This document shows positions 6,121 through 29,679 of a stretch of DNA of 45,181 nucleotides, in pieces (positions within the stretch are counted from its first letter, which is position 1; each line of letters starts with the position of its first letter). The translations under genes were made by a program, and so were the position numbers. The notes beneath the pieces were generated by a model. The model searched no databases, was not told the origin of the DNA, and saw only the letters and a list, made by a program, of their open reading frames with translations. The stretch is from Bacteroidota bacterium. GTDB taxonomy: Bacteria > Bacteroidota > Bacteroidia > Chitinophagales > Chitinophagaceae. Location of the stretch: the NCBI GenBank assembly GCA_013285595.1, contig JABDHF010000013.1:1-45181 (forward strand), written 5' to 3'.

Positions 6121-6287
6121 AAAGCCGCACCCCAGCCCTCTCCTAAGAGGTAAACACCTGGGTCAATTCCAGGCCAATTTGAAGAAACTCTCCTGCTGAA
6201 AACTCATTCCTTTTAACATAACTTCGTGGATTCCGGGAAAAAATATCCAAAATATATTTTCAACATTATTTGAAGGCTAAGGGACAG

Positions 6288-8186: not shown

Positions 8187-9312
8187 TCTATACCAAAATA
8201 TTCTTACGGAAGACATCTTAACTGATGTATGCCGAAGAATAACCGGACGTGCAGAATTTACAGTTGCGTTTGACAATACTGGCTATAATAAGGGGCGTTT
8301 GGCAATATTAGAATACCAGGGAAATACAAGCTATATCTCCTTTTCTGAAACAGAGAACACGGGCAGGAATTCAAGTTTTCAGAGTTTCCCGAGTGCGCTG
8401 GTAAGCTATCATCGTGCAGGAAATCTAAACAAAGAAATTTATTTTTATTTTCTTCCTTCTGAGGGGAATAATGAAACGCCGTATTTCATCTTTATGTATC
8501 GGCTTATGAAAACAGCTGGAACGATATTATTGAACGAGGATCAGTATTTAGAAAATGACATCACCCCATTTAATTCGGTTTCGGATTTAATTGCTCAAAG
8601 AGATCTGAACAGAGGGAGAAATAGAGGGAATAGTTCGACCTATGTGACCGTTGATGAAGATGATACCGTGCAAATATTTGGTAAAACGTACGGTGCCAGT
8701 AAGTACGAAACAACATTATTGTGCCTGGCAATTTATGAAGTAAACAGTAAGGTAGAATTGTATGAGATCGGGGAAGGAGGGCTAAGAGAATTGCCTGAGC
8801 TGGCAAGGGAGGTAATTGTATCTCTTGGTATCAGGGTTATTACGTCAGATTTAGTCATTGAACGGGACCAGGAAGAATTTGAAAACAATGATAGCTTACG
8901 CTCCCCAACTTATATTTATAATCTTTTGGAAAAACTTGGAGAGAAGAAATGTTCATTATGTGATTGTGAGGTACCACAAATAATTCAAGGCGCTCATATT
9001 TGGCCCGTGGCAAGCATAAAGAGGCTGCGGGATATTAATCAAGACGCTAAACTTCAGTCGGCACTTGACGGCAATAACGGTCTTTGGCTTTGTAATAATC
9101 ATCACAAACTATTTGATATTGACTATCTCTATATCAATGAGGAAGGGGTAATAAAATACAAGTCAACTATTCCAAGAGGTTATGAAGAATATATTTGCGG
9201 CTTAACAGTAAAGCGGCAGATACCAGGCAATATAATGACAGCTAATTTTTTGCAATATCTCGAAAAACGAAACATCCGGCTAAATGAGAACGACTATAGC
9301 TTAGTTAGATAG
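8128..9312 (+). CDS. HNH-type restriction endonuclease partner of the double methyltransferase
   Basis: A 394-residue protein whose first 59 bp overlap the methyltransferase gene in another frame, implying translational coupling. The C-terminal third is an HNH domain of HNH_2 style: C275xxC278, AH290IWPVA, DGNNGLWLCNNHHKLFD (316-330), giving H290, N317 and H325/H326 as likely metal or catalytic residues and a Cys-based zinc knuckle. The first ~240 residues have no recognised motif and probably read the DNA target. Position directly after a modification enzyme supports a restriction role, but this is not proven. Starts at 8128, 8131 or 8137 are possible. It shares the AT-rich composition of the methyltransferase. 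Confidence 0.8.
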   Translation: MMRMPIPHFIIKNRFQKRLDLYQNILTEDILTDVCRRITGRAEFTVAFDNTGYNKGRLAILEYQGNTSYISFSETENTGRNSSFQSFPSALVSYHRAGNLNKEIYFYFLPSEGNNETPYFIFMYRLMKTAGTILLNEDQYLENDITPFNSVSDLIAQRDLNRGRNRGNSSTYVTVDEDDTVQIFGKTYGASKYETTLLCLAIYEVNSKVELYEIGEGGLRELPELAREVIVSLGIRVITSDLVIERDQEEFENNDSLRSPTYIYNLLEKLGEKKCSLCDCEVPQIIQGAHIWPVASIKRLRDINQDAKLQSALDGNNGLWLCNNHHKLFDIDYLYINEEGVIKYKSTIPRGYEEYICGLTVKRQIPGNIMTANFLQYLEKRNIRLNENDYSLVR

Positions 9313-15274: not shown

Positions 15275-16126
15275 TTACACAGGCAAAAACTCGTTTATAG
15301 CGGCTACTATTTCCTTTGCCCCTTCGCCGTAGAGCATGGTTTGGTGGTTGCCGTCTACGCCTTCATACGTGGCATGGGGCATCATTTCTACGGTTTCTTT
15401 GGCTATATAGTCGGGCAGCAACGGTTCGCCCATGGTATAGTTATCCAAGGCGTTTATGAGCAGGGTATGCTGCTTTATTTGCGGTATGGTTGTTTCCCAG
15501 TCTACGGTGCTTAGCGCTAACGATTTTTCTGTTATCGCCATAAGATTGGCGCGTGGTGTTACATGTCCTTTCGGCAGGTCTTCCACGTCGGCACGGTAGT
15601 AGCTGAGCATTGCTGGATCCCAGAAGGTGAGGTAGGGCGCCTTTTTTACGTGCTCTATATATGCATTAAAGCTATGGTAAGTAGCCTCGAGCCGCGATAT
15701 TGCTTTCGACAGCATTTCTACTGCCTTTGGGTTCATTGCTTTTGCGGCATCCATTATCACCAGCCGCTCTACCACATCAGGATAGTTAGCGGCCAGATAA
15801 AAAGCCATGTACCCGCCAAAGGAGTGGCCACCCAGGTATATTTTCTCTTTCCCCAGGTGCTTTATCAGACCTAGTATGTCCTGCACATGCTCTTCCACTG
15901 TATAGCAAAATGCGGGCTTATCGCTGAGTCCGTTACCGCGCATATCGGGGCATATCACGTGGTAGCGTTCACCAAGGCCATCGGCCATCAAGCCATCGAA
16001 GGCGTGGCCATTAGCTGTGAGGCCGTGCAGCAGCAGCAACATAGGGCCGTCGCCGCCGTGGTCTACATAATTAAGGTTGATATTATTTACTGGTACTAAA
16101 TGCTCTTCATCGTGAAGTTGCGCCAT
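15275..16126 (-). CDS. Alpha/beta hydrolase
   Basis: A 283-residue classical alpha/beta hydrolase. The oxyanion-hole HG is at LLHGL (~31-36), the nucleophile S102 in GGHSFGG, and the C-terminal His is about H261 (DGNHQTMLYGEG). DMRGNGLSDKP matches the cap-proximal loop common in esterases, C-C bond hydrolases and epoxide or dehalogenase relatives. No signal peptide is present. It is 30 bp downstream of the 3-hydroxybutyrate dehydrogenase gene and probably co-transcribed. A role on a 3-hydroxyacyl ester is possible from context only; the substrate is unknown. Confidence 0.85.
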   Translation of the reverse strand: MAQLHDEEHLVPVNNINLNYVDHGGDGPMLLLLHGLTANGHAFDGLMADGLGERYHVICPDMRGNGLSDKPAFCYTVEEHVQDILGLIKHLGKEKIYLGGHSFGGYMAFYLAANYPDVVERLVIMDAAKAMNPKAVEMLSKAISRLEATYHSFNAYIEHVKKAPYLTFWDPAMLSYYRADVEDLPKGHVTPRANLMAITEKSLALSTVDWETTIPQIKQHTLLINALDNYTMGEPLLPDYIAKETVEMMPHATYEGVDGNHQTMLYGEGAKEIVAAINEFLPV

Positions 16127-16156
16127 GAAAAAAGTTGAGGATTAGATAAATGAAAA

Positions 16157-16927
16157 TTATTGCGCCGTCCAGCCAGCATCTACAGGCATAGCTATACCGG
16201 TAATGGTTTTGGCGTCGTCGCTGGCAAGGAACAGAGCCGTTTGCGCTAACAACTCTATGGGTATGAATTCTTTTACCGCATGGCGCTCCAGGAACACTTT
16301 TTCAATGACTTCTTTTTCGGTCATGTTGTGTGCCTTTGCCTGAGCTGGTATCTGCTGCTCTACCAGTGGGGTATCTACATAGCCGGGGCATATGGCATTG
16401 CAGGTAATTCCGTATGGGGCGCCCTCAAGCCCCATGGTCTTGGTAAAGCCTACTATGCCATGTTTAGCTGCCACATACGCGCTCTTGAACTCCGAAGCAC
16501 GTAACCCATGAGCTGAAGCTATATTGATGATGCGGCCAAATTTCTGTGCCTTCATTGCAGGCCAAACTGCTTTAGTAACATGAAATGCTGCCGACAGGTT
16601 TACTGCAATGATAGCATCCCACTTTTCATCGGGGAATTCATCTATAGGCGCTACAAACTGGATGCCGGCATTATTAACCAGCACATCTATAGTGCCGAAA
16701 GTCTTAATAGCATTGGCCACCATAGTGCGGATGGCATCGGGCTGCATGAGGTTGGCAGGAGAAAATGTGTGGGCTATTTTGTACTGATCAGCGACCTGCT
16801 GTGCTATTTCTGCGCCGTTTGGCTCCAGGCCGTTGAAAGCAACGTTGTATCCTTTTTCTGCAAATGCTTTTGCTATTCCCAGGCCTATACCGCTGGTGCT
16901 GCCTGTTATTAAGATCGTTTTTGACAC
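16157..16927 (-). CDS. D-3-hydroxybutyrate dehydrogenase (SDR family)
   Basis: A 256-residue short-chain dehydrogenase. The NAD-binding TGSTSGIGLGIA is at 8-19 and NNAG at 85-88, with the catalytic triad S138, Y151 and K155 in NIASAHGLRASEFKSAYVAAK. The segment ASAHGL...KSAYVAAKHGI.GFTK and the long lid region (EQQIPAQAKAHNMTE) are characteristic of bacterial D-beta-hydroxybutyrate dehydrogenases, which interconvert 3-hydroxybutyrate and acetoacetate with NAD. It is cytoplasmic. It leads a likely two-gene operon with the alpha/beta hydrolase. An exact promoter box lies 15 bases upstream. Confidence 0.88.
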   Translation of the reverse strand: MSKTILITGSTSGIGLGIAKAFAEKGYNVAFNGLEPNGAEIAQQVADQYKIAHTFSPANLMQPDAIRTMVANAIKTFGTIDVLVNNAGIQFVAPIDEFPDEKWDAIIAVNLSAAFHVTKAVWPAMKAQKFGRIINIASAHGLRASEFKSAYVAAKHGIVGFTKTMGLEGAPYGITCNAICPGYVDTPLVEQQIPAQAKAHNMTEKEVIEKVFLERHAVKEFIPIELLAQTALFLASDDAKTITGIAMPVDAGWTAQ

Positions 16928-16941
16928 AGTAAAAATTTTGG

Positions 16942-16949
16942 CAAACTTA
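16942..16949 (-). promoter_or_regulatory. -7 promoter box for the hydroxybutyrate dehydrogenase operon
   Basis: The minus-strand sequence TAAGTTTG is an exact TAnnTTTG match, ending 15 bases before the ATG at 16927. Confidence 0.5.
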
Positions 16950-17113
16950 GTGCTTTATGATGCCAATGAATGGTTAATTTTTTGCAGGAGAAGTGGAGTT
17001 GAAGTGAAATTATAATAAAGAAACAGATAAGGAAGATCTAATTTGAGTCATTACGGGCTCAATACTTTTTCATTTATAAAGAGTCACCGATATTATTCTT
17101 TTCTTTACGCTCT

Positions 17114-18037
17114 ATGAGCAGTAACTTATCCATAGCCATACACGGTGGCGCAGGTACCATACTACGGAACACCATGACTCCGGAATTACAGCAGCAATAT
17201 GAAGCAGGCCTGCAACAGGCGCTGGATGCAGGTTACGGTATACTTGCAGCAGGTGGCAGCAGCCTCGATGCTGTGGAGGCTGCAGTAGTGTTGCTGGAGG
17301 ATTTTCCTTTGTTTAATGCCGGTAAGGGAGCTGTGTTCAACAATGTGGGTGGGCATGAGATGGATGCTTCGATCATGTATGGTAAAGGGCTGGAGGCCGG
17401 CGCTGTATGTGGCGTGAGCCATATAAAAAATCCGGTGAAGCTGGCACGGGCCATTATGGAGCATAGCGGCCATGTAATACTCTGTGGCGCAGGTGCAGAG
17501 CAGTTTGCAAAGCTGCAGAATATAGCTTTCGAAGACGATGCCTACTTCTATACGGAGCAGCGTTACCAGCAATGGCAGCAGGCACTGCTGGAAGATAAAG
17601 TGCAACTAGACCATTCTGATAAAAAATTTGGTACTGTAGGCGCGGTGGCACTAGACGTGCAAGGCAACCTTGCCGCAGCTACCAGCACGGGTGGTATGAC
17701 CAATAAAAAGTTTGGCAGGGTGGGCGATAGCCCGGTGCCTGGTGCGGGCACTTATGCCAACAATAACACCTGCGCTATCTCCTGCACAGGACATGGCGAG
17801 CTGTTTTTGCGGTGTGTGGTGGCTTACGATATTTCGTGCCTCGTGGAATATAGAGGTCTGTCGCTAAAGGAGGCCTGCGATACAGTGGTGTATGATAAAC
17901 TTGTAAAGATAGGCGGCGAAGGCGGCCTTATAGCTATAGACCGGTACGGGAATATAGAAATGCCTTTTAATAGTGAAGGCATGTATCGTGCCTGCAGGAA
18001 TAGTGATGGGCGAAATGAGGTACTTATCTATAGATAG
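17114..18037 (+). CDS. iaaA: Isoaspartyl peptidase / plant-type L-asparaginase (Ntn hydrolase)
   Basis: A 307-residue proenzyme. It begins SIAIHGGAGTI, the family N-terminus, and carries GTVGAVALD with T174 as the Thr that becomes the nucleophile after autocleavage, then TSTGGMTNKKFGRVGDSPVP and GTYANN, which shape the substrate pocket. The enzyme releases the N-terminal beta-linked Asp from isoaspartyl dipeptides. No signal peptide is present, so it is cytoplasmic. Cyanophycinase (19066-19941) and cyanophycin synthetase (20568-23189) lie nearby, so its likely physiological substrate is beta-Asp-Arg, the product of cyanophycinase. That link is inference from gene context and known cyanophycin catabolism; asparaginase activity is also plausible. 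Confidence 0.9.
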   Translation: MSSNLSIAIHGGAGTILRNTMTPELQQQYEAGLQQALDAGYGILAAGGSSLDAVEAAVVLLEDFPLFNAGKGAVFNNVGGHEMDASIMYGKGLEAGAVCGVSHIKNPVKLARAIMEHSGHVILCGAGAEQFAKLQNIAFEDDAYFYTEQRYQQWQQALLEDKVQLDHSDKKFGTVGAVALDVQGNLAAATSTGGMTNKKFGRVGDSPVPGAGTYANNNTCAISCTGHGELFLRCVVAYDISCLVEYRGLSLKEACDTVVYDKLVKIGGEGGLIAIDRYGNIEMPFNSEGMYRACRNSDGRNEVLIYR

Positions 18038-18091
18038 CCATTTTCTTCCCGCAGTTTTTTCACCTATTTTTATGCTTCCAAAGGTTGGCCT

Positions 18092-19051
18092 ATGAAGCGT
18101 GTATGGGTATATATTTTAGTGCTGTGTGTTGCCATATCAGCAATGGTGATCTCCTGCAAAAAAAGTAGCGATCAGGGTTCAAAAGTTTCTGACGCTGCTG
18201 CACTTAGCAGCCTGCTTGGTAGCCTGCATGCTGCTCCATACACGCTTAGTGTGCAGGCGGGTAAAGATGCAATAGTATATTGTGCGCGCAGCACCCGGCT
18301 TCATTTTTATCCTAATTCATTTAAAGATGGGGTTGGGCGCGCTGTTTCCTCCGGCACTGTAGCGGTAACAGTAACAGAGGTATACAATACCAGTGATCTT
18401 ATAAGCCACTACATAAACACCGGAACAACATATAGTTTATTTGGATGCAGCGGCGCGGTAAACATTGAGGCGTTAATAAATGGGCAGCCCGTTTATGCCG
18501 ACAGGTATAGCATTGGGTTTACGCAGCCTGAGGCATCGAATAAATCTGCGCAACTGTTTTACGGATATGTAGGTGCGGATTCACTGGTGTCATGGTCGCA
18601 GAACTATTTTCCTAATTCCGGCACATCAGCGGCATCTACCAGTATAGATGGTTCGGGCTCTAATTTTTACCGTTACCAGCTTGATTCCTGCACCAGCTTT
18701 AACTGGGTTTGCTGCGGGCGCCTTGCGATAAATACTGCGCCAAAAACAAATGTACAAATTGTGCTTCCTGACACCACTTTCAACGCTTTGAATACGCGGG
18801 TATTTATTGTGCTGCCCGATGATAAAATCATTGTAAGTGCCACGATCGCCTCGGCTGGCACCTTCACACTGCTTTCAGGAGCACTCGTGCCCACTGGCGC
18901 GTCGTACGAGATCGTAGTGCTGGCAGCAAAAAAGGGTGTTTATTATTATGCTCAGAGCACAGGTACTGTTACAGACGGGCTGACTTTACATCCGTCGTTA
19001 ATGGCTACTGCTAAAGAAAATATAATGTCTGCACTTGTGGCGCTCCGGTGA
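18092..19051 (+). CDS. Lipoprotein of unknown function
   Basis: A 319-residue protein with a lipoprotein signal peptide (hydrophobic 4-20, lipobox VISC with C22, then KKSS). The mature part begins with an Ala/Leu-rich segment and is then beta-rich (HFYPNSFKD.VG..VSSGTVAVTVTEVY). This resembles the N-terminal region of Bacteroidota surface lipoproteins with a ZU5/GAIN-like or carboxypeptidase-regulatory-like sandwich, but I cannot assign a family. It lies 54 bp after the isoaspartyl peptidase gene, same strand, and 14 bp from the convergent cyanophycinase gene. A functional link to cyanophycin is not shown by the sequence. Confidence 0.75.
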   Translation: MKRVWVYILVLCVAISAMVISCKKSSDQGSKVSDAAALSSLLGSLHAAPYTLSVQAGKDAIVYCARSTRLHFYPNSFKDGVGRAVSSGTVAVTVTEVYNTSDLISHYINTGTTYSLFGCSGAVNIEALINGQPVYADRYSIGFTQPEASNKSAQLFYGYVGADSLVSWSQNYFPNSGTSAASTSIDGSGSNFYRYQLDSCTSFNWVCCGRLAINTAPKTNVQIVLPDTTFNALNTRVFIVLPDDKIIVSATIASAGTFTLLSGALVPTGASYEIVVLAAKKGVYYYAQSTGTVTDGLTLHPSLMATAKENIMSALVALR

Positions 19052-19065
19052 TTTATCTCCCCTGG

Positions 19066-19941
19066 CTACTCCTTATCGTCTACCTCAATTTCGGCGCCTA
19101 CGAATTTCCTGGTCTCCAGGTTATATACGTCTCCCTTCGACATGATGTGCACGATGATATTTTCTACAGATATAGGCATGCCGAAATCAATATCGGCAAT
19201 ATTGTTATACTCAATATTCTTGCCGTCTATGATCACCACGCTGCCGGAACCAATAGCCTTTAGTTCGTGCCCCTGAGATACGATGACGCCTGTGTCTTCA
19301 CCAAGGCCAATACCTATAGCTCCGGGTTGTGCTGCTACAGCCTGTGCCAGCCGATTGAATCTGCCGCGCTGATCGAAGTGGGTATCTATGATCACATTTT
19401 GCAGCAAGCCGAGGCCTGTGGTTATTTTTACTTCGCCCTTCAGGTTGGCCAGTGCGGCGCTGCCTTCATAGATCATAGTATTGCTCATGGCCATAGCGCC
19501 TGCGCTGGTGCCTGCTATCAGGAAGTTGCCCTGCTGGTAGCGTTGTTTGAGCACGTCGAGAAAATCAGTTCCGCCGAAAATAGAAGAGAGTCGCAACTGG
19601 TTGCCACCTGAGAACATAATGCAGTTGCATGCCAGCAGCCGCTTCATATAGTCGGGCTGCGCTACATCTTCGCGGTTGCGGATGCGCATGTGGCCCACAT
19701 TCATACAACCCAGCTTTTCGAAAGCCTCTATATAGTTTTGCGCTACCTCATCTGGTATCGATGATGCAGTGGTTATAACCTCTACACAGGGGCCAGCGGC
19801 GCCTATAAGGCTCACTATATTTTTAAGTATACCTAATTCAAAAAAATTAAGACGGTTACGTTGTAAGATGCCTTTTTCAAGATCTGTGCCTTTATCTTCT
19901 GCGCCGCCAACAGCTACCAGATGCCCTAGGGGATATGTCAA
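19066..19941 (-). CDS. cphB: Cyanophycinase
   Basis: A 291-residue peptidase S51-type protein. The nucleophile S146 sits in AGTSAGAMAMS; FSGGNQLRL (110-118), DTHFDQRGRFNRL and GLGEDTG supply the other conserved pocket and catalytic residues expected for cyanophycinase. The start is a TTG at 19941: an in-frame stop lies two codons upstream, and MTYPLGHLVAVGGAEDKG is the proper family N-terminus. The intracellular type has no signal peptide, and none is seen. It cuts cyanophycin to beta-Asp-Arg dipeptides, which the neighbouring isoaspartyl peptidase could split. Cyanophycin synthetase is encoded divergently 0.6 kb away. Confidence 0.9.
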   Translation of the reverse strand: MTYPLGHLVAVGGAEDKGTDLEKGILQRNRLNFFELGILKNIVSLIGAAGPCVEVITTASSIPDEVAQNYIEAFEKLGCMNVGHMRIRNREDVAQPDYMKRLLACNCIMFSGGNQLRLSSIFGGTDFLDVLKQRYQQGNFLIAGTSAGAMAMSNTMIYEGSAALANLKGEVKITTGLGLLQNVIIDTHFDQRGRFNRLAQAVAAQPGAIGIGLGEDTGVIVSQGHELKAIGSGSVVIIDGKNIEYNNIADIDFGMPISVENIIVHIMSKGDVYNLETRKFVGAEIEVDDKE

Positions 19942-20042
19942 CTTTTACTCGATTTGGTGAAAAATGAAAGGTTGAAATTAGGGTATTTTGTACAATTGGT
20001 ATTTTGATGGTGAATTGTGTGTGGGTAAATAATATACAGGAT

Positions 20043-20483
20043 CTAAAAATTATAGGCTATCCCCACCTTGTTCTTCCCCGGAATAACCAGCCCAACATAG
20101 TCTTTTCGTATCCTGTGATTATGTATAGACCCGCCTATCACCATGCCCAGCCCAACAGGCGCCATAATAGCGCCAATGATCACCATAGCCCTGCCGCCCC
20201 TAGCTTCTGACTCTGCTGTGGGCAATGGGTCGTAGCTTCTTGCTTCCTGGGCGGAGGCATCAAGCTCTTCAAACAGGCCGGCGACAACAAGCAGGCCTCC
20301 TACAGTCATTGACAAGCCTCCCACAATGCACACAGGCCCCGGCCTGTAATGCCTGTGTGGAAACTGTGTTGCCAAAGGTGGTACAATTTGATCTTTTGGT
20401 AAGGTTACTGATGCAAAGGTTTGTGCATCAGCATTAGCTATTAGCACCAGGTTGATGGCAAGGCTGAAAAAGATAATTTTCAA
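20043..20483 (-). CDS. Small exported protein of unknown function between cphB and cphA
   Basis: The frame is open to 20627, but that would overlap cphA and lacks a sensible N-terminus. A TTG at 20483 begins a good signal peptide (KIIFFSLAINLVLIANADAQ) and is preceded by TATATTTA (20499-20506), a near-match promoter box; this gives 146 residues. The mature protein has two hydrophobic, glycine-rich segments (VCIVGGLSMTVGGLLVVAGLF and MVIIGAIMAPVGLGMVIGG) separated by a charged stretch, then a short soluble tail. It may be membrane inserted. No family was recognised. Its place between cyanophycinase and cyanophycin synthetase is notable, but a role is not demonstrated. Confidence 0.65.
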   Translation of the reverse strand: MKIIFFSLAINLVLIANADAQTFASVTLPKDQIVPPLATQFPHRHYRPGPVCIVGGLSMTVGGLLVVAGLFEELDASAQEARSYDPLPTAESEARGGRAMVIIGAIMAPVGLGMVIGGSIHNHRIRKDYVGLVIPGKNKVGIAYNF

Positions 20484-20567
20484 TAGCGTGTGTTTATATA
20501 AATATACAAAATATTGCAGTTCTACTTGAAAATCAGTATTTTGGTTAAGTAAAACAACTTCGCGGAG

Positions 20568-23189
20568 ATGAAAATACTGGAGATAAAAACAATGAGCGGG
20601 CCAAATTACTGGTCGGTGAGCAGGCACAAACTTATAGTGATGCTGCTGGACCTGGAGGATATGGAAGATAAGCCCACCAATAAGATACCAGGCTTCCTAG
20701 AGCGGCTGACAGCTTTAATGCCTACGCTATACGAACACCGCTGCTCTGAAGGTGTGCCCGGCGGATTTTTTCAGCGTATAACAGAAGGTACCTGGATGGG
20801 CCATGTGATAGAGCACATAGCGCTGGAACTACAAACACTTGCCGGTATGGATACCGGGTTTGGGCGTACGCGCGAAACGAAAGACTCCGGTGTATATCAT
20901 GTTGTGTTTTCTTACCAGGAAGCAAAGGCTGGTGTTTACACGGCAAAAGCTGCGGTAAAGATAGCCCAGGCCCTGGTAGATAACGAGCCTTATGACCTGG
21001 AAGCAGATATTCAGAACCTGCGCGAGATACGCGAAGACGAGCGCCTGGGGCCAAGCACAGGGTCTATAGTAGATGAGGCTATAAAAAGAAGAATACCCTT
21101 TATAAGGCTTAACCGGCACTCACTGGTGCAACTGGGTTATGGTATTAACCAATGCCGTGTGCAGGCTACCATAGCCAGTACTACCAGCAGCATAGCTGTG
21201 GAGATAGCCTGCGATAAAGAAGAGACCAAAAACCTGCTGGAAGCATCGGAAATACCGGTGCCGCGTGGCCGCATTATTTATGATGAGGAAGACCTGAAAA
21301 ATGCTATTGACAAGATAGGCTACCCAATTGTCACAAAACCTGTAAACGGGAATCATGGCAAGGGCGCTACGACCAATATACGCACCTGGGAAGATGCTGT
21401 GGCTGGGCTTGCCGCAGCAAAGGTTTATGGAAGGTCAGTGATCTGTGAAAAGTTTATTACCGGGCGCGATTTCAGGGTGCTGGTGATCAACTATAAGTTT
21501 GTGGCAGCGGCGCTACGCACCCCGGCGTCGATCACAGGCGATGGTGAGCATACCATACAGCAACTGATAGATATAATAAACAGCGACCCACGCCGCGGCT
21601 ATGGCCACGAAAAAGTATTGACTGCCATAAAGGTCGATGCTTTCACCATGGATATACTGGCGAAGAAAGAATATACACTGGATACCATATTGAAAAAGAG
21701 GGAAGAGCTATGGCTGAAGCCAACAGCCAACCTCAGCACCGGCGGCACGGCCACCGACGTAACGGAAATGGTACACCCCACCAATGTATTTATGTGCGAG
21801 CGTATAGCCCGTATCATAGGCCTCAACATTTGCGGTATAGATATCATGGCGTCTGACTTATCAACTCCATTAAGTGAGAGTGGTGGTGCGGTGCTGGAGG
21901 TTAATGCGGCGCCGGGCTTCCGTATGCACCTGGATCCTACCGAAGGTATTCCGCGCAATGTAGCAGAGCCGGTTATAGATATGCTGTATCCGCCGGGTTC
22001 GTCGGCACGTATACCGATCATAGCGGTATCTGGTACCAATGGTAAGACGACCACCACAAGGCTGATAGCGCATATTGTGAAGCAGATGGGGTACAAAGTA
22101 GGCTATACCACTACTGATGGTGTATACATACAAAACCAGATGATGATGAAGGGGGACTGTACAGGGCCGGTATCGGCAGAGTTTGTGCTGCGCGACCCTA
22201 CGGTAAACTATGCAGTGCTGGAATGCGCGCGTGGTGGTATATTACGTGCCGGGCTGGGCTTTCATAATTGCGATGTAGCCGTGGTGACCAATGTAGCTGA
22301 AGATCATATGGGCCTCGGTGGTATTGACACAATAGAAAAGCTGGCTAAGGTAAAGGCAGTAGCGGCGCATACGGTGTTCAAAGAAGGTTATGCAATACTG
22401 AATGCTGATGACGACCTGGTATATGAGATGCACAAAGACCTCGACTGCAAGGTTGCCTACTTCTCGCTGAAGGAAGATAGCATGCGCATAAAAAGACATT
22501 GTGCTAAGGGTGGTATTGCCGCCATTTATGAGCACGGTTATGTGACGATTCTAAAAGGCACCTGGAAAATAAGAGTAGAAAAGGTAACCAATATCCCGCT
22601 TACATTCTCAGGCATGGCGGAGTTTAATATAGCCAATGTGCTGGCGGCCACACTGGCTACTTACGTGCAGGATTTTAAAACGGAAGACATACGCCAGGCG
22701 TTGCAGACGTTTGCACCGTCGCCGGCATTCACACCGGGCCGTATGAATATGTTCCACTTCCGGAATTACTCTGTGATGATAGACTATGCACATAATACAC
22801 ATGGCCTGCTGGCGATAGGCAAATTTGTAAAATCGGTAGAGGCATCCGTAAAAGTGGGTATCATAGCGGGTGTAGGGGATAGACGTGATGAGGATATTAT
22901 ATCACTGGGCGAGGCTGCCGCACAAGTCTTTGACGAGATCATCATACGGCAGGATAAAAACCTTCGCGGGCGTACCGAGGAAGATATAATAGAGCTGATG
23001 ACAAGGGGTATACATAATATAGACCCGCAGAAAAAAATTGTAGTAATAAAAAAAGAAAGCGAGGCTATAGATTATGCATTCAGCAATGCCATAAAAGACA
23101 GCTTTATAGTGATCACCAGCGATGTAGTGCCTGATGCACTGGAGCAGGTGAAGCAGTATAAGGCAAAAGAGGATGGGGTGCTGATGTGA
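20568..23189 (+). CDS. cphA: Cyanophycin synthetase (CphA1 type)
   Basis: An 873-residue enzyme, the usual CphA1 length. It has the conserved N-terminal domain (MKILEIKTMSGPNYWSV, then GHVIEHIALELQTLAGMDTGFGRTR), an ATP-grasp domain (~210-475, with KPVNGNHGKG at ~257 and VLEVNAAPGFRMH), and a Mur-ligase-like domain with P-loop GTNGKTTTTR starting at 489, later DYAHNTHG and GVGDRRDEDI. CphA1 alternately adds Asp to the backbone and Arg to its beta-carboxyl group, using ATP. A TATTTTG string at 20537 is a promoter-like box 25 bases upstream. It is divergent from the small exported protein and ends at a strong hairpin. Together with cphB and the isoaspartyl peptidase it completes a synthesis and breakdown cycle. 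Confidence 0.95.
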   Translation: MKILEIKTMSGPNYWSVSRHKLIVMLLDLEDMEDKPTNKIPGFLERLTALMPTLYEHRCSEGVPGGFFQRITEGTWMGHVIEHIALELQTLAGMDTGFGRTRETKDSGVYHVVFSYQEAKAGVYTAKAAVKIAQALVDNEPYDLEADIQNLREIREDERLGPSTGSIVDEAIKRRIPFIRLNRHSLVQLGYGINQCRVQATIASTTSSIAVEIACDKEETKNLLEASEIPVPRGRIIYDEEDLKNAIDKIGYPIVTKPVNGNHGKGATTNIRTWEDAVAGLAAAKVYGRSVICEKFITGRDFRVLVINYKFVAAALRTPASITGDGEHTIQQLIDIINSDPRRGYGHEKVLTAIKVDAFTMDILAKKEYTLDTILKKREELWLKPTANLSTGGTATDVTEMVHPTNVFMCERIARIIGLNICGIDIMASDLSTPLSESGGAVLEVNAAPGFRMHLDPTEGIPRNVAEPVIDMLYPPGSSARIPIIAVSGTNGKTTTTRLIAHIVKQMGYKVGYTTTDGVYIQNQMMMKGDCTGPVSAEFVLRDPTVNYAVLECARGGILRAGLGFHNCDVAVVTNVAEDHMGLGGIDTIEKLAKVKAVAAHTVFKEGYAILNADDDLVYEMHKDLDCKVAYFSLKEDSMRIKRHCAKGGIAAIYEHGYVTILKGTWKIRVEKVTNIPLTFSGMAEFNIANVLAATLATYVQDFKTEDIRQALQTFAPSPAFTPGRMNMFHFRNYSVMIDYAHNTHGLLAIGKFVKSVEASVKVGIIAGVGDRRDEDIISLGEAAAQVFDEIIIRQDKNLRGRTEEDIIELMTRGIHNIDPQKKIVVIKKESEAIDYAFSNAIKDSFIVITSDVVPDALEQVKQYKAKEDGVLM

Positions 23190-23233
23190 TGAGGTAAATT
23201 AACATTCTCTGGAATAACTATAATCCCGACGTT

Positions 23234-23274
23234 AAAAAAGCTAAACCCTAGTATTATCAGGGTTTAGCTTTTTT
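23234..23274. terminator. Bidirectional intrinsic terminator
   Basis: Perfect 16-bp arms, AAAAAAGCTAAACCCT (23234-23249) and AGGGTTTAGCTTTTTT (23259-23274), enclose a 9-base loop. A/T runs on both sides let it work in both directions: after cphA (plus strand) and after the truncated HigB-like gene (minus strand). Confidence 0.88.
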
Positions 23275-23313
23275 GAGCTCTTTTTGCGGATGATACGGTG
23301 TTATTTTTACCGG

Positions 23314-23487
23314 TTAATTTATGCAGATTCCGGTTTCTGAAAGCCTCAAAATCTGAAGGAGCCTGTTGCCACTATCAATAACTTCCAGCATTATTTCAAT
23401 TCGAGTTATAAGATCTGCCGGCAACTTGTTGCCGTTGCCTTCCTCCCACAGCAGCCGTAACCCTTTATGCTGTATGCTTTTGATCAT
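23314..23487 (-). pseudogene. higB: Truncated HigB/RelE-family toxin remnant
   Basis: A 57-residue reading frame: MIKSIQHKGLRLLWEEG, then NGNKLPADLITRIEIMLEVID. This matches the N-terminal half of HigB-type ribosome-dependent mRNA interferases (typical start MIKSI/F.HKGL..L.E.G). A full HigB has about 90-95 residues; here the part normally reading G..LH.LKG and the C-terminal catalytic strand are replaced by RLSETGICIN and a stop. No HigA-like antitoxin follows on the minus strand. It is therefore most likely a decayed, inactive toxin gene. A palindrome like a HigA operator remains upstream. Confidence 0.7.
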
Positions 23488-23495
23488 ATAACTAT

Positions 23496-23521
23496 CGTAT
23501 GGTGTAAGGTTACGCTATACG
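23496..23521. promoter_or_regulatory. Imperfect palindrome upstream of the higB remnant, probable old operator
   Basis: CGTATGGTGTAA (23496-23507) and TTACGCTATACG (23510-23521) are inverted with 10 of 12 positions pairing, around GG. It starts 8 bp upstream of the HigB-like ATG, where a HigA antitoxin usually binds to autoregulate the operon. No antitoxin gene is in this window. Confidence 0.5.
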
Positions 23522-23603
23522 AACGATCTTTCGAAATTTGCTCAAATAAAAAATATGTCAAACTATATAATATATAATTACACATTCAATAATAACTATT
23601 CTC

Positions 23604-23611
23604 TATCTTTG
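23604..23611 (+). promoter_or_regulatory. -7 promoter box for the 23631 gene
   Basis: TATCTTTG is an exact TAnnTTTG match, ending 19 bases before the ATG at 23631. The preceding 60 bases are very AT-rich. Confidence 0.55.
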
Positions 23612-23630
23612 CGGCCCCTCAATACAGATT

Positions 23631-24254
23631 ATGAACACCCCACCCAATTTGATAACTTCATTAACCAGGCGGCCAGCTGACCCTTACAGGTTCAGGGGGG
23701 TATTGACTGCGGGAGAAGCCAAGCATCATATAATGCCATGGAGGGAATTAGAAAAAATAGGTATTGAGATACTAAAAGATAAGAAAAATAAGGCGGCGAA
23801 TGTCAACAGGATATTTGATGCTATTAATGACTCTGCCAAAGCCAGTATTCACCTTGGCCGCTCTTCCTCGATAAACTTTGTGGCTAATCTATTAGCAGAT
23901 AACCCCCGTGCCGACGATGTAGAAGTGTGGCTTGGTTTGATAGCTTGGTTGCCGGGCAATATTGTGGTAGGCCCGCTTCAGCACAGCAATGATCCGCTTA
24001 TAAAAAGGAGCCCGCGCCAGAGAGGCAATAACTGGGGAGACAAGTTTGATGAAGAAGCATTTGAACTGCTGCAAAAAGCAGATATAAAATACAGGCCACG
24101 CTGTAAAGCTATTCTTGACCTGAAAAACCGGTCGCTTCCACTTGATTGGAAAGCTAAGTTGCTTGCCCAGCTTGGTAAAGGCAGCTATGCAAAAGTAGGT
24201 AGCGACTGGCGAAGATTAGGGCTAAAACATTCAATGCCCCAGAAAAGGCGATAG
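23631..24254 (+). CDS. Protein with HHxxP motif, possible nuclease-like toxin; function unknown
   Basis: A 207-residue, basic, soluble protein without signal peptide or membrane segment. Two features stand out: AKHHIMPWREL (H32, H33, P36) and WLPGNIVVGPLQHSNDP (106-122). A doubled His before a proline followed by a downstream GN/H segment recalls HNH/AHH-fold nucleases and toxin domains in which HHI.P binds metal, but the match is weak and no family can be named. Residues ~135-207 are charged and probably helical. It has its own promoter box and is followed 25 bp later by the Spx/ArsC-like gene. No neighbouring immunity or antitoxin gene is apparent. Confidence 0.65.
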   Translation: MNTPPNLITSLTRRPADPYRFRGVLTAGEAKHHIMPWRELEKIGIEILKDKKNKAANVNRIFDAINDSAKASIHLGRSSSINFVANLLADNPRADDVEVWLGLIAWLPGNIVVGPLQHSNDPLIKRSPRQRGNNWGDKFDEEAFELLQKADIKYRPRCKAILDLKNRSLPLDWKAKLLAQLGKGSYAKVGSDWRRLGLKHSMPQKRR

Positions 24255-24279
24255 TGAAAACAAATACTACATTCAATCC

Positions 24280-24627
24280 ATGATCACCCTATACGGAATA
24301 AAGAATTGCGATACCATGCAGAAAGCTTTTAAATGGCTGGATGCAAAGAAGATCCGGTATTCATTTCACAATTACAAAGAAGCAGGTATAGATAAGGCGA
24401 CCCTTGAATTGTGGCTGAACCATTTTGCTGCAGATAAGCTCATAAATACAAAGAGCACCACCTATCGCGGCTTCACAGATGCCGAAAAAGCAGGCATAGG
24501 CAACAAGGCAAAAGCAATAATATCAATGATGAATAACACCTCTGTTATCAAGCGGCCGGTATGGGATCTTGGCAATGGCCAATTCTTTCTGGGGTGGGAC
24601 GAAGAAGAATTGAGTAAGCTGATATAG
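24280..24627 (+). CDS. Spx/MgsR/YffB-like member of the ArsC family
   Basis: A 115-residue thioredoxin-fold protein. It begins ITLYGIKNCDTMQKAFKWLD with a single active-site Cys at residue 10, and has VIKRPVWDLGNGQFFLGWDEEE near the end, typical of YffB and related ArsC-like proteins. Without the further conserved cysteines, true arsenate reductase activity is doubtful; a glutathione-linked reductase or regulatory role is possible. It is probably co-transcribed with the preceding HHxxP gene. It ends 8 bp from a convergent hydrolase gene. Confidence 0.85.
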   Translation: MITLYGIKNCDTMQKAFKWLDAKKIRYSFHNYKEAGIDKATLELWLNHFAADKLINTKSTTYRGFTDAEKAGIGNKAKAIISMMNNTSVIKRPVWDLGNGQFFLGWDEEELSKLI

Positions 24628-24635
24628 CCAGCGCT

Positions 24636-25790
24636 CTACTGCCTCGTTACCCTGTGCACAAAGCGCTCTATGGTGTACTTTGCCAGTTGGCCCGATGGGC
24701 TGTTTAACGAGTACTCACAGCCGTGCGTAGCCCATGGGGGGCCTAATAAGAGGTGTGGCACCTTGTTTTCTTCCAGCTTTTTATCCAGCATCTGGCTTAG
24801 TTCATAATTTACATGGGCATCATTTTGTCCATGTATCAGTAAAGTAGCCGGGCTGTGGGGGGTTACAAAGTTTATAGGCGAGCCATCAGCATATTGTTGT
24901 GGTACCTGTGTATCTGAGCCGCCTAAGAAATCTTCCATCACTTTCCTGGAGTCCATCACCAGCGGATTATCGGGGTGGTTGTATGCCCATTCCATATCGG
25001 TAGGGCCGTAAAGGCCTACCACGCCCTTTATACATGGGTCGTGCAATGTATAAGCAGACTCCAGCACAATATGACCACCCGCCGAACGGCCTAGCAACAC
25101 GAAATTATTGGTATCTATATTTAGTTCCGCAGCATGGCTTTTCAGGTAGGCAATGGCGGCCTGCATATCTTCTATTGGCGCCGGGCTCTTGTAGGTGGGC
25201 GCCAGGCGGTAATTGATGCTGGCTACATTATAGCCCTGCCGGGCCAGGTACCAGTCTATATCTGGCAATTCGTGGCTATTGCCGCTTTTCCACGAGCCCC
25301 CGTGGGCTATAACTATGCAGGGCTGCTTACCGGCCTGCTGCGCTTTGTAGAAATCAAGCGTAAGGTTTACGCCGGTATGCACAGCATAAGGGTACGTGGT
25401 ATAGCTGACCTTGTTATCGCCAATACCTGAGATCATTCGTGTGAAGCTATAAGGTGTAGGCTGCTGCAATCCCGTCAGTGTTGCACTGCCAGGGCCAAAA
25501 GCGTCCTCGAACTTCTGCTGCAGATCGTGTCCTATGCTGTAGGCCCCAGCTATGGGGTAAAGGAAAATGATAAAAGAGATCATGCAGAGTACCGCACCTG
25601 GCCCTTTATATTTTTTTGAAAAGAAAGTCCAGGCCATCAATGCTACGATAATGGAGAGAAACACCCATGGAAACTCTGTAACCATGATGGTGATATACCA
25701 GATATAGTGCGATGGGGTAGGAATAATAACCAGCAGCGAAAGAAGAGACAATAAAATAATGAGCACAAGGCGAACCATATTCAGCGCCAC
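24636..25790 (-). CDS. Membrane-anchored alpha/beta hydrolase (esterase/BD-FAE type)
   Basis: A 384-residue protein with three hydrophobic segments in the first ~100 residues (e.g. VRLVLIILLSLLSLLVIIP, VFLSIIVALMAWTFF, VLCMISFIIFLYPIAG). A catalytic domain follows, with HGGSWKSG as the oxyanion hole, GRSAGGHI holding the nucleophile Ser, and a late His in WATHGCEY. This layout fits lipase/esterases of the hormone-sensitive-lipase or BD-FAE group held in the membrane, with the active domain outside or in the periplasm. The start may be the GTG at 25790 or the ATG at 25778. Substrate unknown. Confidence 0.82.
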   Translation of the reverse strand: MALNMVRLVLIILLSLLSLLVIIPTPSHYIWYITIMVTEFPWVFLSIIVALMAWTFFSKKYKGPGAVLCMISFIIFLYPIAGAYSIGHDLQQKFEDAFGPGSATLTGLQQPTPYSFTRMISGIGDNKVSYTTYPYAVHTGVNLTLDFYKAQQAGKQPCIVIAHGGSWKSGNSHELPDIDWYLARQGYNVASINYRLAPTYKSPAPIEDMQAAIAYLKSHAAELNIDTNNFVLLGRSAGGHIVLESAYTLHDPCIKGVVGLYGPTDMEWAYNHPDNPLVMDSRKVMEDFLGGSDTQVPQQYADGSPINFVTPHSPATLLIHGQNDAHVNYELSQMLDKKLEENKVPHLLLGPPWATHGCEYSLNSPSGQLAKYTIERFVHRVTRQ

Positions 25791-27934: not shown

Positions 27935-28606
27935 TCATTTTATTTTTTGACCGTCCAGGTATTGGAACCTAAGTGCGGACGAGTCTCTGAAAAGCCTGTG
28001 AATGTCTATAACCACGTTGTTACCCACCTCGAATGATTTCTCTACAATCATTTTTTCAATGTTGATGTTGTTATAAGGTGTCAACTCATCAGCATTCATA
28101 TATAGCCCTAGTGGCAATTTGCTCTTTCTCAGGTTAAAGAAGCTTTTTCTTCGCGTGTATAGTTCGTTATAGAAGTATAGTGATTTCTTAGACACATCGG
28201 TATAGCCGAGATAAGATGGGCCAAAGCCCACACATTGGTCGAACGCATTATACTTTAGCGAAAAATAAATGGTTATTGAGTCCCTGGGCATGGTGACCAG
28301 TTTTAAGATATATAGCTTCTGGTAAAATCCTTTAAAGGGTTTGTAGTGGAGTATATTCTTATCGTTTTGCGCATTCACTTCGGAATAGTCTATTACATAA
28401 TAACCTTCATACGGTTTCTCTTCAAAGGTTGTTTCGTAAATGTTTACAGAATCTATACGCACATTTTTATTAGTGATCAGTGGTATGGCCTGGTAAAAAG
28501 TGCTGTCAGCAAAGTTATCGCAACTGAACGGAATTATCCTCGGCGAGCATCCGTACGCCGTTGTCAATACCACTATCCAGAATAATATGTGCCTAAAAGC
28601 TGACAT
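27935..28606 (-). CDS. Lipoprotein of unknown function
   Basis: A 223-residue protein with a lipoprotein signal peptide (HILFWIVVLTTAYGC, C20). The mature part alternates charged and aromatic residues (YEGYYVIDYSEVNAQND, FKGFYQKLYILKLVTMP) and is probably beta-rich. No family was recognised. Its start overlaps the end of the preceding gene (28593-29570) by 14 bp, so the two are co-transcribed and may work together at the envelope. Confidence 0.75.
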   Translation of the reverse strand: MSAFRHILFWIVVLTTAYGCSPRIIPFSCDNFADSTFYQAIPLITNKNVRIDSVNIYETTFEEKPYEGYYVIDYSEVNAQNDKNILHYKPFKGFYQKLYILKLVTMPRDSITIYFSLKYNAFDQCVGFGPSYLGYTDVSKKSLYFYNELYTRRKSFFNLRKSKLPLGLYMNADELTPYNNINIEKMIVEKSFEVGNNVVIDIHRLFRDSSALRFQYLDGQKIK

Positions 28607-29570
28607 TGTTTATGTTATTATACACACCGCCTATAAAAAAATGCTGGTTATCGTTGTTAGGGTGTAGCGAGAAGCCCCCCTTCACATGAATAATATCCTG
28701 CAGGCCAAAATAGTACTCCTTCTTTTTCCTGTACGACCGGTCTTTGAGCGCTCCCATGGCGCCCACATCTATTCCATACCCTTTGGCAAGGAAGATCTTC
28801 ACATCATACATTGAGGTATTATAATTGGCTGGCTTAGGGTCATGTGTTCCTTCATTATACTGCAGGTTGTAATTAGGCATATAGATACCCAGCATGCTGC
28901 ACGCCTCAAATAGCAGTGGGCTATACCCGGTAAACTGATCAAAACTAGCCTCTACCGTGTTATAGGTGCTTTTGTAATTATTCGTGTTATGCACGAATAC
29001 CGACAATCCTCCCGTCCAGTACCTGTCCAGGTTATCGGCAAGAGGTATCAGGTAGAAAGGTGCGCCGCCATCATTGAAATAGTTGACCGTAAACTGAGGG
29101 AAGGAAAATGACAAGGAGCCATTTACCTGGTTGCGTTTATGATTATTCAGCACAAAATTACTGGTGAGCAGAAAGGCATAATCTTTATTGAGCAGCACGT
29201 TGTAATAAGAGCCATTGTCCATGGTGCGAAACAATTTGAAATACGGCAGGTCATTGGCGCCGGCGCCAAACGAAAATGAGTTAACAAGGTCTATCTGTAC
29301 GTCTGATACAAGTGGGTTTAGGTTGGCGCCTATTGACTTGGTATAGATACAAAATGAGGGCCCGTAATTAAGGATAAAATGCCCTTTGTAAACCCCATTG
29401 GCAGAAAAGCCGCAAAATACCTTTAGCCCGGGAAAGGCTGTGCTACCCTTGCTGTAATTAAAGGTAAGGTTGCAGCCAAAATTAAAATTCCCATGATACA
29501 CCCACCCATCCTGGCAGTACCCCATACACGTACCGGCCATTAATAACAAGAAAAGGAGCGCTCGTTTCAT
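28593..29570 (-). CDS. Exported beta-rich protein, possibly an outer-membrane barrel
   Basis: The frame is open from 29594, but the ATG at 29570 begins the signal peptide (MKRALLFLLLMAGTCMGYCQ), giving 325 residues. The mature protein is rich in Tyr, Phe, Asn and Gly with alternating patterns (FNFGCNLTFNYS, GHFILNYGPSFCIY, GSLSFSFPQFTVNYF), as in outer-membrane beta-barrels. The last ~70 residues (FLAKGYGIDVGAMGALKDRS, YYFGLQDIIHVKGGFSLHP, FFIGGVYNN) are distinctive. I cannot assign a family; an exported effector-type C-terminal domain is an alternative. It overlaps the downstream lipoprotein gene by 14 bp. Confidence 0.72.
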   Translation of the reverse strand: MKRALLFLLLMAGTCMGYCQDGWVYHGNFNFGCNLTFNYSKGSTAFPGLKVFCGFSANGVYKGHFILNYGPSFCIYTKSIGANLNPLVSDVQIDLVNSFSFGAGANDLPYFKLFRTMDNGSYYNVLLNKDYAFLLTSNFVLNNHKRNQVNGSLSFSFPQFTVNYFNDGGAPFYLIPLADNLDRYWTGGLSVFVHNTNNYKSTYNTVEASFDQFTGYSPLLFEACSMLGIYMPNYNLQYNEGTHDPKPANYNTSMYDVKIFLAKGYGIDVGAMGALKDRSYRKKKEYYFGLQDIIHVKGGFSLHPNNDNQHFFIGGVYNNINNVSF

Positions 29571-29679
29571 TATGGTATTAACGCGAAAGTTCACGATTTA
29601 TTTGCCCGTGCACACACCGAAAGTACTACATTTTAAAGCAAGAAAAACGTTACCTCAGAAAGTTTTGTGCTGTTGCCTG

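What the first reader, a model, noticed from the sequence alone, without database searches (positions are those of the whole stretch)
17114..23189. Compact cyanophycin synthesis-degradation cluster in a Bacteroidota-like genome
Isoaspartyl peptidase, cyanophycinase (TTG start) and CphA1-type cyanophycin synthetase lie within 6 kb. The motifs seen (Thr nucleophile in GTVGAV, GTSAG, ATP-grasp plus Mur P-loop) support all three calls. It is known that CphB yields beta-Asp-Arg and that isoaspartyl peptidases split it. That the three act as one cycle here is inference. Cyanophycin is best studied in cyanobacteria and some Proteobacteria, so a self-contained N-storage module here is noteworthy.
Basis: partly seen in the sequence, partly recalled or inferred. 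Interest (0 to 1): 0.7.

Follow-up and report, generated by a model that had tools for sequence, protein, structure and literature searches.

The report
Bacterial cyanophycin storage gene cluster
A Bacteroidota bacterium carries, side by side, genes that look able to build a nitrogen-storage polymer (cyanophycin) and to take it fully apart again; clusters of this kind are already known, and this one is a well-conserved example in its genus.

Summary
The three gene calls are right. CphA scores 1259.9 bits against TIGR02068 (cut-off 850), with N, G and M catalytic residues kept. CphB scores 233.3 against TIGR02069 (cut-off 126.6), with its Ser/His/Glu and binding pocket kept. IaaA keeps its Thr nucleophile and Asp-binding residues. 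The host is a Flavipsychrobacter-like MAG, 59.6% complete.

It is not one operon: iaaA points right, cphB left, cphA right, and two other ORFs sit in between, with no hit at any of 80 cphA loci.

In its genus, 29 of 35 genomes carry CphA, CphB and this IaaA lineage; 5 carry none; 1 shows only a contig-cut CphA. A second IaaA lineage is found in 32 of 35, including the 5 without CphA. No IadA passes its cut-off in 60 relatives. This is good circumstantial evidence for one cycle.

Such clusters are published (PMC10206079), Bacteroidota included, so this is a new member of a known kind. The oddest find lies outside the window: a detached, conserved CphA M domain in 8 of 35 genus genomes.

The parts
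17114..18037 (+). iaaA: isoaspartyl aminopeptidase / plant-type asparaginase (Ntn hydrolase), 307 aa
   Evidence: PF01112 383.7 bits; NF007589 368.8 bits, below its cut-off of 567; best PDB match 2zak, E. coli; T174, R202, D205, T225, G226 kept in 34 of 34 cluster IaaAs
18092..19051 (+). ORF of 319 aa, lipoprotein-like by eye (MKRVWVYILVLCVAISAMVISCKKSS); probably an interloper
   Evidence: no Pfam or NCBIfam match; dispersed family with matches in 37 of 60 relatives; no hit of 40+ aa at any of 80 cphA loci
19066..19941 (-). cphB: cyanophycinase, peptidase family S51, 291 aa, TTG start
   Evidence: TIGR02069 233.3 bits, cut-off 126.6; PDB 7uqv and 3en0 cyanophycinases; S146, Q115, D186, H188, R192, R194, R197, E215 in 52 of 52 sequences; start codon
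19942..20567 (.). spacer between cphB and cphA, enlarged by the small ORF; in the other 14 canonical clusters of the genus the two model matches are 131-291 bp apart, here 651
20043..20627 (-). small ORF, start uncertain (probably near 20483, so that it does not run into cphA); apparent secreted or membrane protein; probably an interloper
   Evidence: no Pfam or NCBIfam match; weak matches in 8 of 60 relatives and two more in the own genome; no hit at any of 80 loci
20568..23189 (+). cphA1: cyanophycin synthetase, 873 aa, with N, G (ATP-grasp) and M (Mur ligase) domains
   Evidence: TIGR02068 1259.9 bits, cut-off 850; PDB 7lg5 matched over residues 1-862; catalytic residues of all three domains kept

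Best explanation
A complete cyanophycin storage cycle. CphA1 polymerises Asp and Arg with ATP: the G domain extends the Asp backbone, the M domain joins Arg to each Asp side chain, and the N-domain metal site cuts chains into primers so that no outside primer is needed. CphB cuts the polymer to beta-Asp-Arg, and the neighbouring IaaA splits that to Asp and Arg. Shown here from sequence: family membership, kept catalytic residues, gene order, and joint presence and absence in the genus. Inferred: enzyme activity, polymer in cells, primer independence, any shared control. IaaA probably also clears other isoaspartyl dipeptides.
For: Curated family scores over cut-off for CphA and CphB; PDB matches to studied enzymes; CphA C59-x19-H79-x-x-E82-H83, H267, R309, K499, T500, E558, D585, H586 in 81 of 81; CphB and IaaA residues. 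Order iaaA> <cphB cphA> in 15 of the 29 genus genomes that have all three (recounted) and in 29 of 80 named loci. In the genus 29 of 35 genomes have all three and 5 have none, while a second IaaA lineage is in 32 of 35, the 5 included. No IadA over cut-off in 60 relatives.
Against: No activity or granule data. Not an operon, and 13 of 29 genus genomes have the genes apart or on different contigs. G023 shows a contig-cut CphA without CphB or this IaaA, in an 85% complete assembly of about 760 contigs. IaaA is below NCBI's equivalog cut-off. Cluster-linked IaaAs are not one clade across the order. [quoted passage not shown] The own genome is 59.6% complete, so other enzymes may be missed.
Confidence: 0.85

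Rival explanations
1. CphA and CphB form the storage system, and the IaaA next to them is a general isoaspartyl peptidase whose place there carries no special role.
For: PMC10206079 found cluster-linked IaaA promiscuous, and the enzyme family is common outside cyanophycin users; here IaaA matches occur in 57 of 60 relatives. Cluster-linked IaaAs are not one clade over the order.
Against: Within the genus this IaaA lineage is found only in genomes with CphB and CphA (29 of 35 have all three), while a separate IaaA lineage stays in the 5 genomes without them.
Confidence: 0.12
2. The locus serves mainly to scavenge cyanophycin made by other bacteria such as cyanobacteria.
For: Some named relatives are lake or pond MAGs by their titles; scavenging loci with cyanophycinase, isoaspartyl dipeptidase and transporters are described in PMC10206079.
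Against: An intact cphA is present, CphB shows no signal peptide by eye, and no transporter family was matched by the ten proteins scanned at 15275-25790.
Confidence: 0.04
3. CphA makes a different polymer, for example with much Lys or another amino acid on the Asp side chains.
For: PMC10206079 notes that some CphA1 enzymes take up Lys at lower efficiency; the M-domain specificity of this protein was not examined.
Against: Full-length match to studied cyanophycin synthetases and a conserved cyanophycinase beside it.
Confidence: 0.06

Closest known systems
Clusters of cphA1, cyanophycinase and iaaA surveyed by Sharon and Schmeing 2023 (PMC10206079, parts 1-3 of 5 read)
   Same: The same three genes within the 5 kb limit used there; Bacteroidota with CphA1 and cyanophycinase were included in that survey.
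   Different: Here two extra ORFs interrupt the cluster. The genus also keeps a second IaaA lineage, and the paper calls the dipeptidase of Bacteroidota still undiscovered in many genomes.
Synechocystis UTEX2470 CphA1 (PDB 7lg5; PMC9262961 passages)
   Same: Full-length match (residues 1-862, 997.9 bits) and the Cx19HxxEH primer site.
   Different: No difference in the checked residues; activity untested.
Synechocystis CphB (PDB 3en0) and the 7uqv cyanophycinase
   Same: Ser/His/Glu and binding-pocket residues.
   Different: Thr at the Gln173 position, Ser or Thr in 52 of 52 sequences; PMC3235067 (passage) reports Thr there in the active CphEal.
E. coli IaaA / EcAIII (PDB 2zak)
   Same: Thr nucleophile and Asp-binding residues (residue list in PMC10206079).
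   Different: Below NCBI's equivalog cut-off for the E. coli type (368.8 against 567).

Membership tests
CphA1 cyanophycin synthetase | Full-length match to the curated model over its cut-off | tested here: met
   TIGR02068 1259.9 bits against 850; residues 2-864 on model positions 1-861 of 862
CphA1 cyanophycin synthetase | G-domain and M-domain catalytic residues both present (CphA2 lacks the M-domain P-loop, PMC9427784 passage) | tested here: met
   H267, R309, K499, T500, E558, D585, H586 equivalents in 81 of 81 sequences; T522 equivalent is Thr in 79 and Ser in 2 of 81 (which replaces a wrongly placed T522 row); E215 equivalent is Glu in the window, Glu in 65 and Asp in 16 of 81
CphA1 cyanophycin synthetase | N-domain Cx19HxxEH primer-making site (present in 83% of nr70, PMC9262961 passage) | tested here: met
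   C59, H79, E82, H83 in 81 of 81, with 19 residues between C and H in the window
CphA1 cyanophycin synthetase | Makes multi-L-arginyl-poly-L-aspartate | not testable with these tools
   needs expression and polymer analysis
CphB cyanophycinase | Over the cut-off of the cyanophycinase model and not of other S51 peptidases | tested here: met
   TIGR02069 233.3 against 126.6; PepE model 19 against 156
CphB cyanophycinase | Catalytic Ser/His/Glu and pocket Q101, D172, R178, R180, R183 (PMC3235067 passage; the numbers His174 and Glu201 are recalled) | tested here: met
   all present in 52 of 52
CphB cyanophycinase | Gln173 | tested here: not met
   Thr in the window; Thr in 21 and Ser in 31 of 52. 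Not treated as disqualifying, since CphEal has Thr there and is active (PMC3235067 passage)
IaaA isoaspartyl aminopeptidase | Thr nucleophile and Asp-binding residues (T179, R207, D210, S211, T230, G231 of EcIaaA, PMC10206079) | tested here: met
   T174, R202, D205, T225, G226 in 34 of 34; position 206 Ser in 29 (window included), Thr in 5
IaaA isoaspartyl aminopeptidase | Over the cut-off of NCBI's equivalog model for the E. coli type | tested here: not met
   NF007589 368.8 against 567; so a member of the family (PF01112 383.7 against 27), not shown to be the same equivalog
IaaA isoaspartyl aminopeptidase | Self-cleavage and hydrolysis of beta-Asp-Arg | not testable with these tools
   needs purified protein
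cphA1-cyanophycinase-iaaA cluster (PMC10206079) | Genes separated by no more than 5 kb | tested here: met
   all three within 17114-23189

The most novel reading that the evidence does not exclude
In this genus the cyanophycin cycle is gained and lost as a unit with its own IaaA lineage, and about a quarter of the genomes (8 of 35) add one more enzyme: a free-standing CphA M domain that joins Arg (or another amino acid) to Asp side chains in trans, for example to finish or edit under-decorated chains.
Probability: 0.25. Interest if true: 0.55.

Novelty: new member of a known kind. Interest (0 to 1): 0.3.

Why it matters
PMC10206079 says that the isoaspartyl dipeptidase(s) of Firmicutes and Bacteroidota remain undiscovered, because many CphA1 genomes there showed neither IaaA nor IadA. 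In this genus an IaaA lineage tracks CphA and CphB, and in some other families of the order an IaaA-family gene also sits beside cphB. That makes the last step of cyanophycin breakdown directly testable in Bacteroidota. Flavipsychrobacter stenotrophus strain RB1R16 carries the cphA (L056), but no cphB or iaaA hit lay within the 8 kb fetched on each side of it, and its whole genome was not searched by name. Otherwise the finding adds this genus to the list of probable cyanophycin users.

Tried and rejected
(1) That the 18092-19051 ORF belongs to the pathway: judged unlikely, not excluded. Its family is dispersed (matches in 37 of 60 relatives, 21-40% identity) and gave no hit of 40+ aa at any of 80 cphA loci. 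Against this dismissal, two family members in relatives lie near related genes: G016:C19, about 0.75 kb from the second IaaA, and G005:C416, about 1.6 kb from a cyanophycinase fragment. (2) That the small ORF at 20043 is a conserved part: no hit at any of 80 loci, weak matches in 8 of 60 relatives. (3) IadA as the last enzyme: 0 of 60 relatives over cut-off; 50 of 60 had only weak matches of at most 27.8 bits against a cut-off of 331.25. (4) A perfect match of the three genes in the genus, as printed (29, 29, 29): G023 turned out to hold a contig-cut CphA, 91% identical, so it is 29 with all three, 5 with none, 1 with CphA only. The 71% identity line for 'this IaaA lineage' was drawn after seeing the data; other hits of this kind in the genus are at 58-63%, with fragments at 65% and 52% (G023) and 70% over 102 aa (G018). 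The chance figure printed ignores shared descent and is not used. (5) One cluster-only IaaA clade across the order: not found, the label needs 7 changes and at least 3 are forced by starred branches. (6) The '17' for all three within 5 kb printed counts G007, whose two gene pairs lie on different contigs; the right number is 16 of 29, of which 15 canonical and G018 in another order. (7) Dipeptidase candidates beside cphB where no IaaA hit lay near: one search listed 17 ORFs at 10 loci; 8 of them, from 7 loci, were scanned. None was a clear candidate; L107 has a secreted M1 peptidase. (8) One row ('T522') sits one residue off; one search gives the right one.

Paper searches cover only the open-licence PMC library. 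One search (cyanophycin + Mur ligase + stand-alone) gave 0 papers; it is the only search behind any remark on the detached M domain. Papers: PMC10206079, parts 1-3 of 5 read; PMC9262961, PMC9427784, PMC3235067 and PMC10687191, passages only; all others, listings only. No structure was predicted and no fold search was run.
Full report
What is there. Searches place three ORFs as described: iaaA 17114-18037 (+), cphB 19066-19941 (-) and cphA 20568-23189 (+). Two further ORFs lie between them, at 18092-19051 (+) and 20043-20627 (-). CphA matches the curated cyanophycin synthetase model over nearly its whole length (1259.9 bits, cut-off 850) and CphB the cyanophycinase model (233.3, cut-off 126.6; PepE only 19). 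IaaA is a clear Asparaginase_2 protein (383.7 bits), nearest in the PDB to E. coli IaaA, but it falls below NCBI's equivalog cut-off for that enzyme (368.8 against 567).

Active sites. Against residue numbers in PMC9262961 and PMC9427784 (passages), CphA keeps the N-domain metal site (C59, 19 residues, H79, E82, H83), the G-domain H267 and R309, and the M-domain K499, T500, E558, D585 and H586; each is invariant in 81 of 81 sequences, that is the window plus 80 loci. The N-domain motif marks the primer-independent majority of CphA1 enzymes (fully present in 83% of nr70, PMC9262961). CphB keeps the equivalents of S132, Q101, D172, H174, R178, R180, R183 and E201 in 52 of 52 sequences; the Q173 equivalent is Thr here and Ser or Thr in all 52. 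PMC3235067 (passage) reports Thr at that place in CphEal, which is active. The numbers His174 and Glu201 are recalled. IaaA keeps T174, R202, D205, T225 and G226 in 34 of 34 cluster sequences; position 206 is Ser in 29 and Thr in 5. These correspond to EcIaaA residues listed in PMC10206079.

The host. The window lies in a MAG of 2.93 Mb, 146 contigs, 59.6% complete. F. stenotrophus RB1R16 carries a CphA 87% identical (L056).

Conservation. Over 60 relatives, cyanophycinase is over cut-off in 41, CphA in 40, and IaaA matches at E 1e-20 or better occur in 57. In the genus (own genome plus 34), CphA, CphB and an IaaA at 71% identity or more are all present in 29 of 35. Five (G008, G009, G026, G028, G030; four of them 99% complete, G026 57%) have none, and G023 has only a CphA cut by a contig end. 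A second IaaA lineage (76-100% identical to the own genome's copy) is found in 32 of 35, and the 5 genomes without CphA are among them. The two lineages separate cleanly in a 64-row tree (100/100). In a wider 89-row tree the genus paralogue stays one clade (100/99), but cluster-linked IaaAs of other families do not form one clade; some of its branches are long and their places unsure. So the tie between this IaaA and CphB is strong within the genus, and elsewhere other IaaAs may fill the role. No relative has an IadA over cut-off (0 of 60).

Gene order. In 15 of the 29 genomes (own included) the order is iaaA> <cphB cphA> at one place; G018 has another order; in the other 13 the genes are apart or on different contigs, partly through fragmented assemblies (recounted). 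Among 80 named loci picked by CphA, 50 have cphB within 5 kb, 33 have cphB and iaaA, 29 of these in the canonical order; of the 51 with at least 5 kb on both sides the numbers are 35, 24 and 21. Neither extra ORF of the window has a hit of 40+ aa at any of the 80 loci. The model matches of cphB and cphA are 131-291 bp apart in the other 14 canonical clusters of the genus and 651 here; by eye both ends of the short spacer are still present, with the small ORF between them.

How it most likely works. CphA1 builds cyanophycin from Asp, Arg and ATP; CphB cuts it to beta-Asp-Arg; IaaA splits the dipeptide. The synthesis and breakdown genes are divergent, which would allow separate control. All this is inference from families, residues and genome patterns. 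PMC10206079 found cluster-linked IaaA and IadA enzymes promiscuous, so this one probably also handles other isoaspartyl dipeptides.

Known or new. PMC10206079 (parts 1-3 of 5) already describes clusters of cphA1, cyanophycinase and iaaA (49 of 153 genomes with all three) and gives 86 Bacteroidota genomes with CphA1, all with cyanophycinase, 22.1% with IaaA and/or IadA. It also states that the dipeptidase(s) of Firmicutes and Bacteroidota remain undiscovered. This locus and its relatives suggest that in this genus, and in some other families of the order, it is an IaaA-family enzyme. That is a useful detail, not a new kind of system.

Something odder nearby. Seven same-genus genomes (G007, G010, G012, G014, G015, G023, G024) have an intact free-standing protein of about 416-421 aa that is 57-61% identical to the window CphA's M domain. 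K499, T500, E558, D585 and H586 equivalents are kept in 7 of 7, the T522 equivalent is Ser in 7 of 7, and 89 of the 119 columns invariant in 81 CphA M domains are kept. dN is far below dS in the 13 of 21 pairs where dS could be computed. The seven form one clade apart from 81 CphA M domains (100/100). The own genome has it in two pieces on contigs C10 and C50, the first running into unrelated sequence after about 176 residues. Among 298 genomes of the order (a sample, own genome included), no other match at E 1e-110 or better has an open frame shorter than 571 aa. All eight carriers also have a CphA, contig-cut in G023. Its role is unknown; an Arg-ligating helper is my guess.

Noticed in passing
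L186:1492-2739 (-), L187:2449-3714 (+), L192, L195, L196, L197, L198; own genome in two pieces, L193:190-930 and L194: Free-standing paralogue of the CphA M domain (about 416-421 aa) in 7 same-genus genomes plus two pieces in the own genome; catalytic residues kept, under purifying selection, one clade.
   Followed up: partly
L183:172-1014 (-) beside L183:1027-1947 (-); same arrangement in L184 (G059, G039): A divergent Asparaginase_2 protein (PF01112 261.4 bits; 33-34% identical to the window IaaA) lies 12 bp downstream of cphB in the same direction in G059: a candidate for a distant IaaA that surveys could miss.
   Followed up: partly
G036:C23:401349-403046 (-): A cyanophycinase-like stretch (78.4 bits, below cut-off) and an IaaA stretch (58% identical) both report an open frame of 663 aa, so probably one fused protein, in a genome without a CphA match at E 1e-60.
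   Followed up: no
L067:9725-11469 (= G024:C493); G003:C15:14215-15932: Two different cyanophycinases side by side on opposite strands, the second 39% identical to the window CphB in L067.
   Followed up: no
window 16157-16927 (-) and 15275-16126 (-): A 3-hydroxybutyrate dehydrogenase (TIGR01963 348.9 bits, cut-off 307.05) next to an alpha/beta hydrolase, just left of the cluster.
   Followed up: no
window 6270-9312 (+): D12-class adenine DNA methyltransferase and an HNH endonuclease protein in overlapping ORFs; looks like a restriction-modification pair.
   Followed up: no
window 28593-29594 (-): Weak match to Ntox23 (23.3 bits, below the cut-off of 26.2); not evidence of a toxin.
   Followed up: no
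G016:C19:15018-17722; G005:C416:8-3104: Two relatives of the window's 18092-19051 ORF lie near the second IaaA or a cyanophycinase fragment; may be chance.
   Followed up: no
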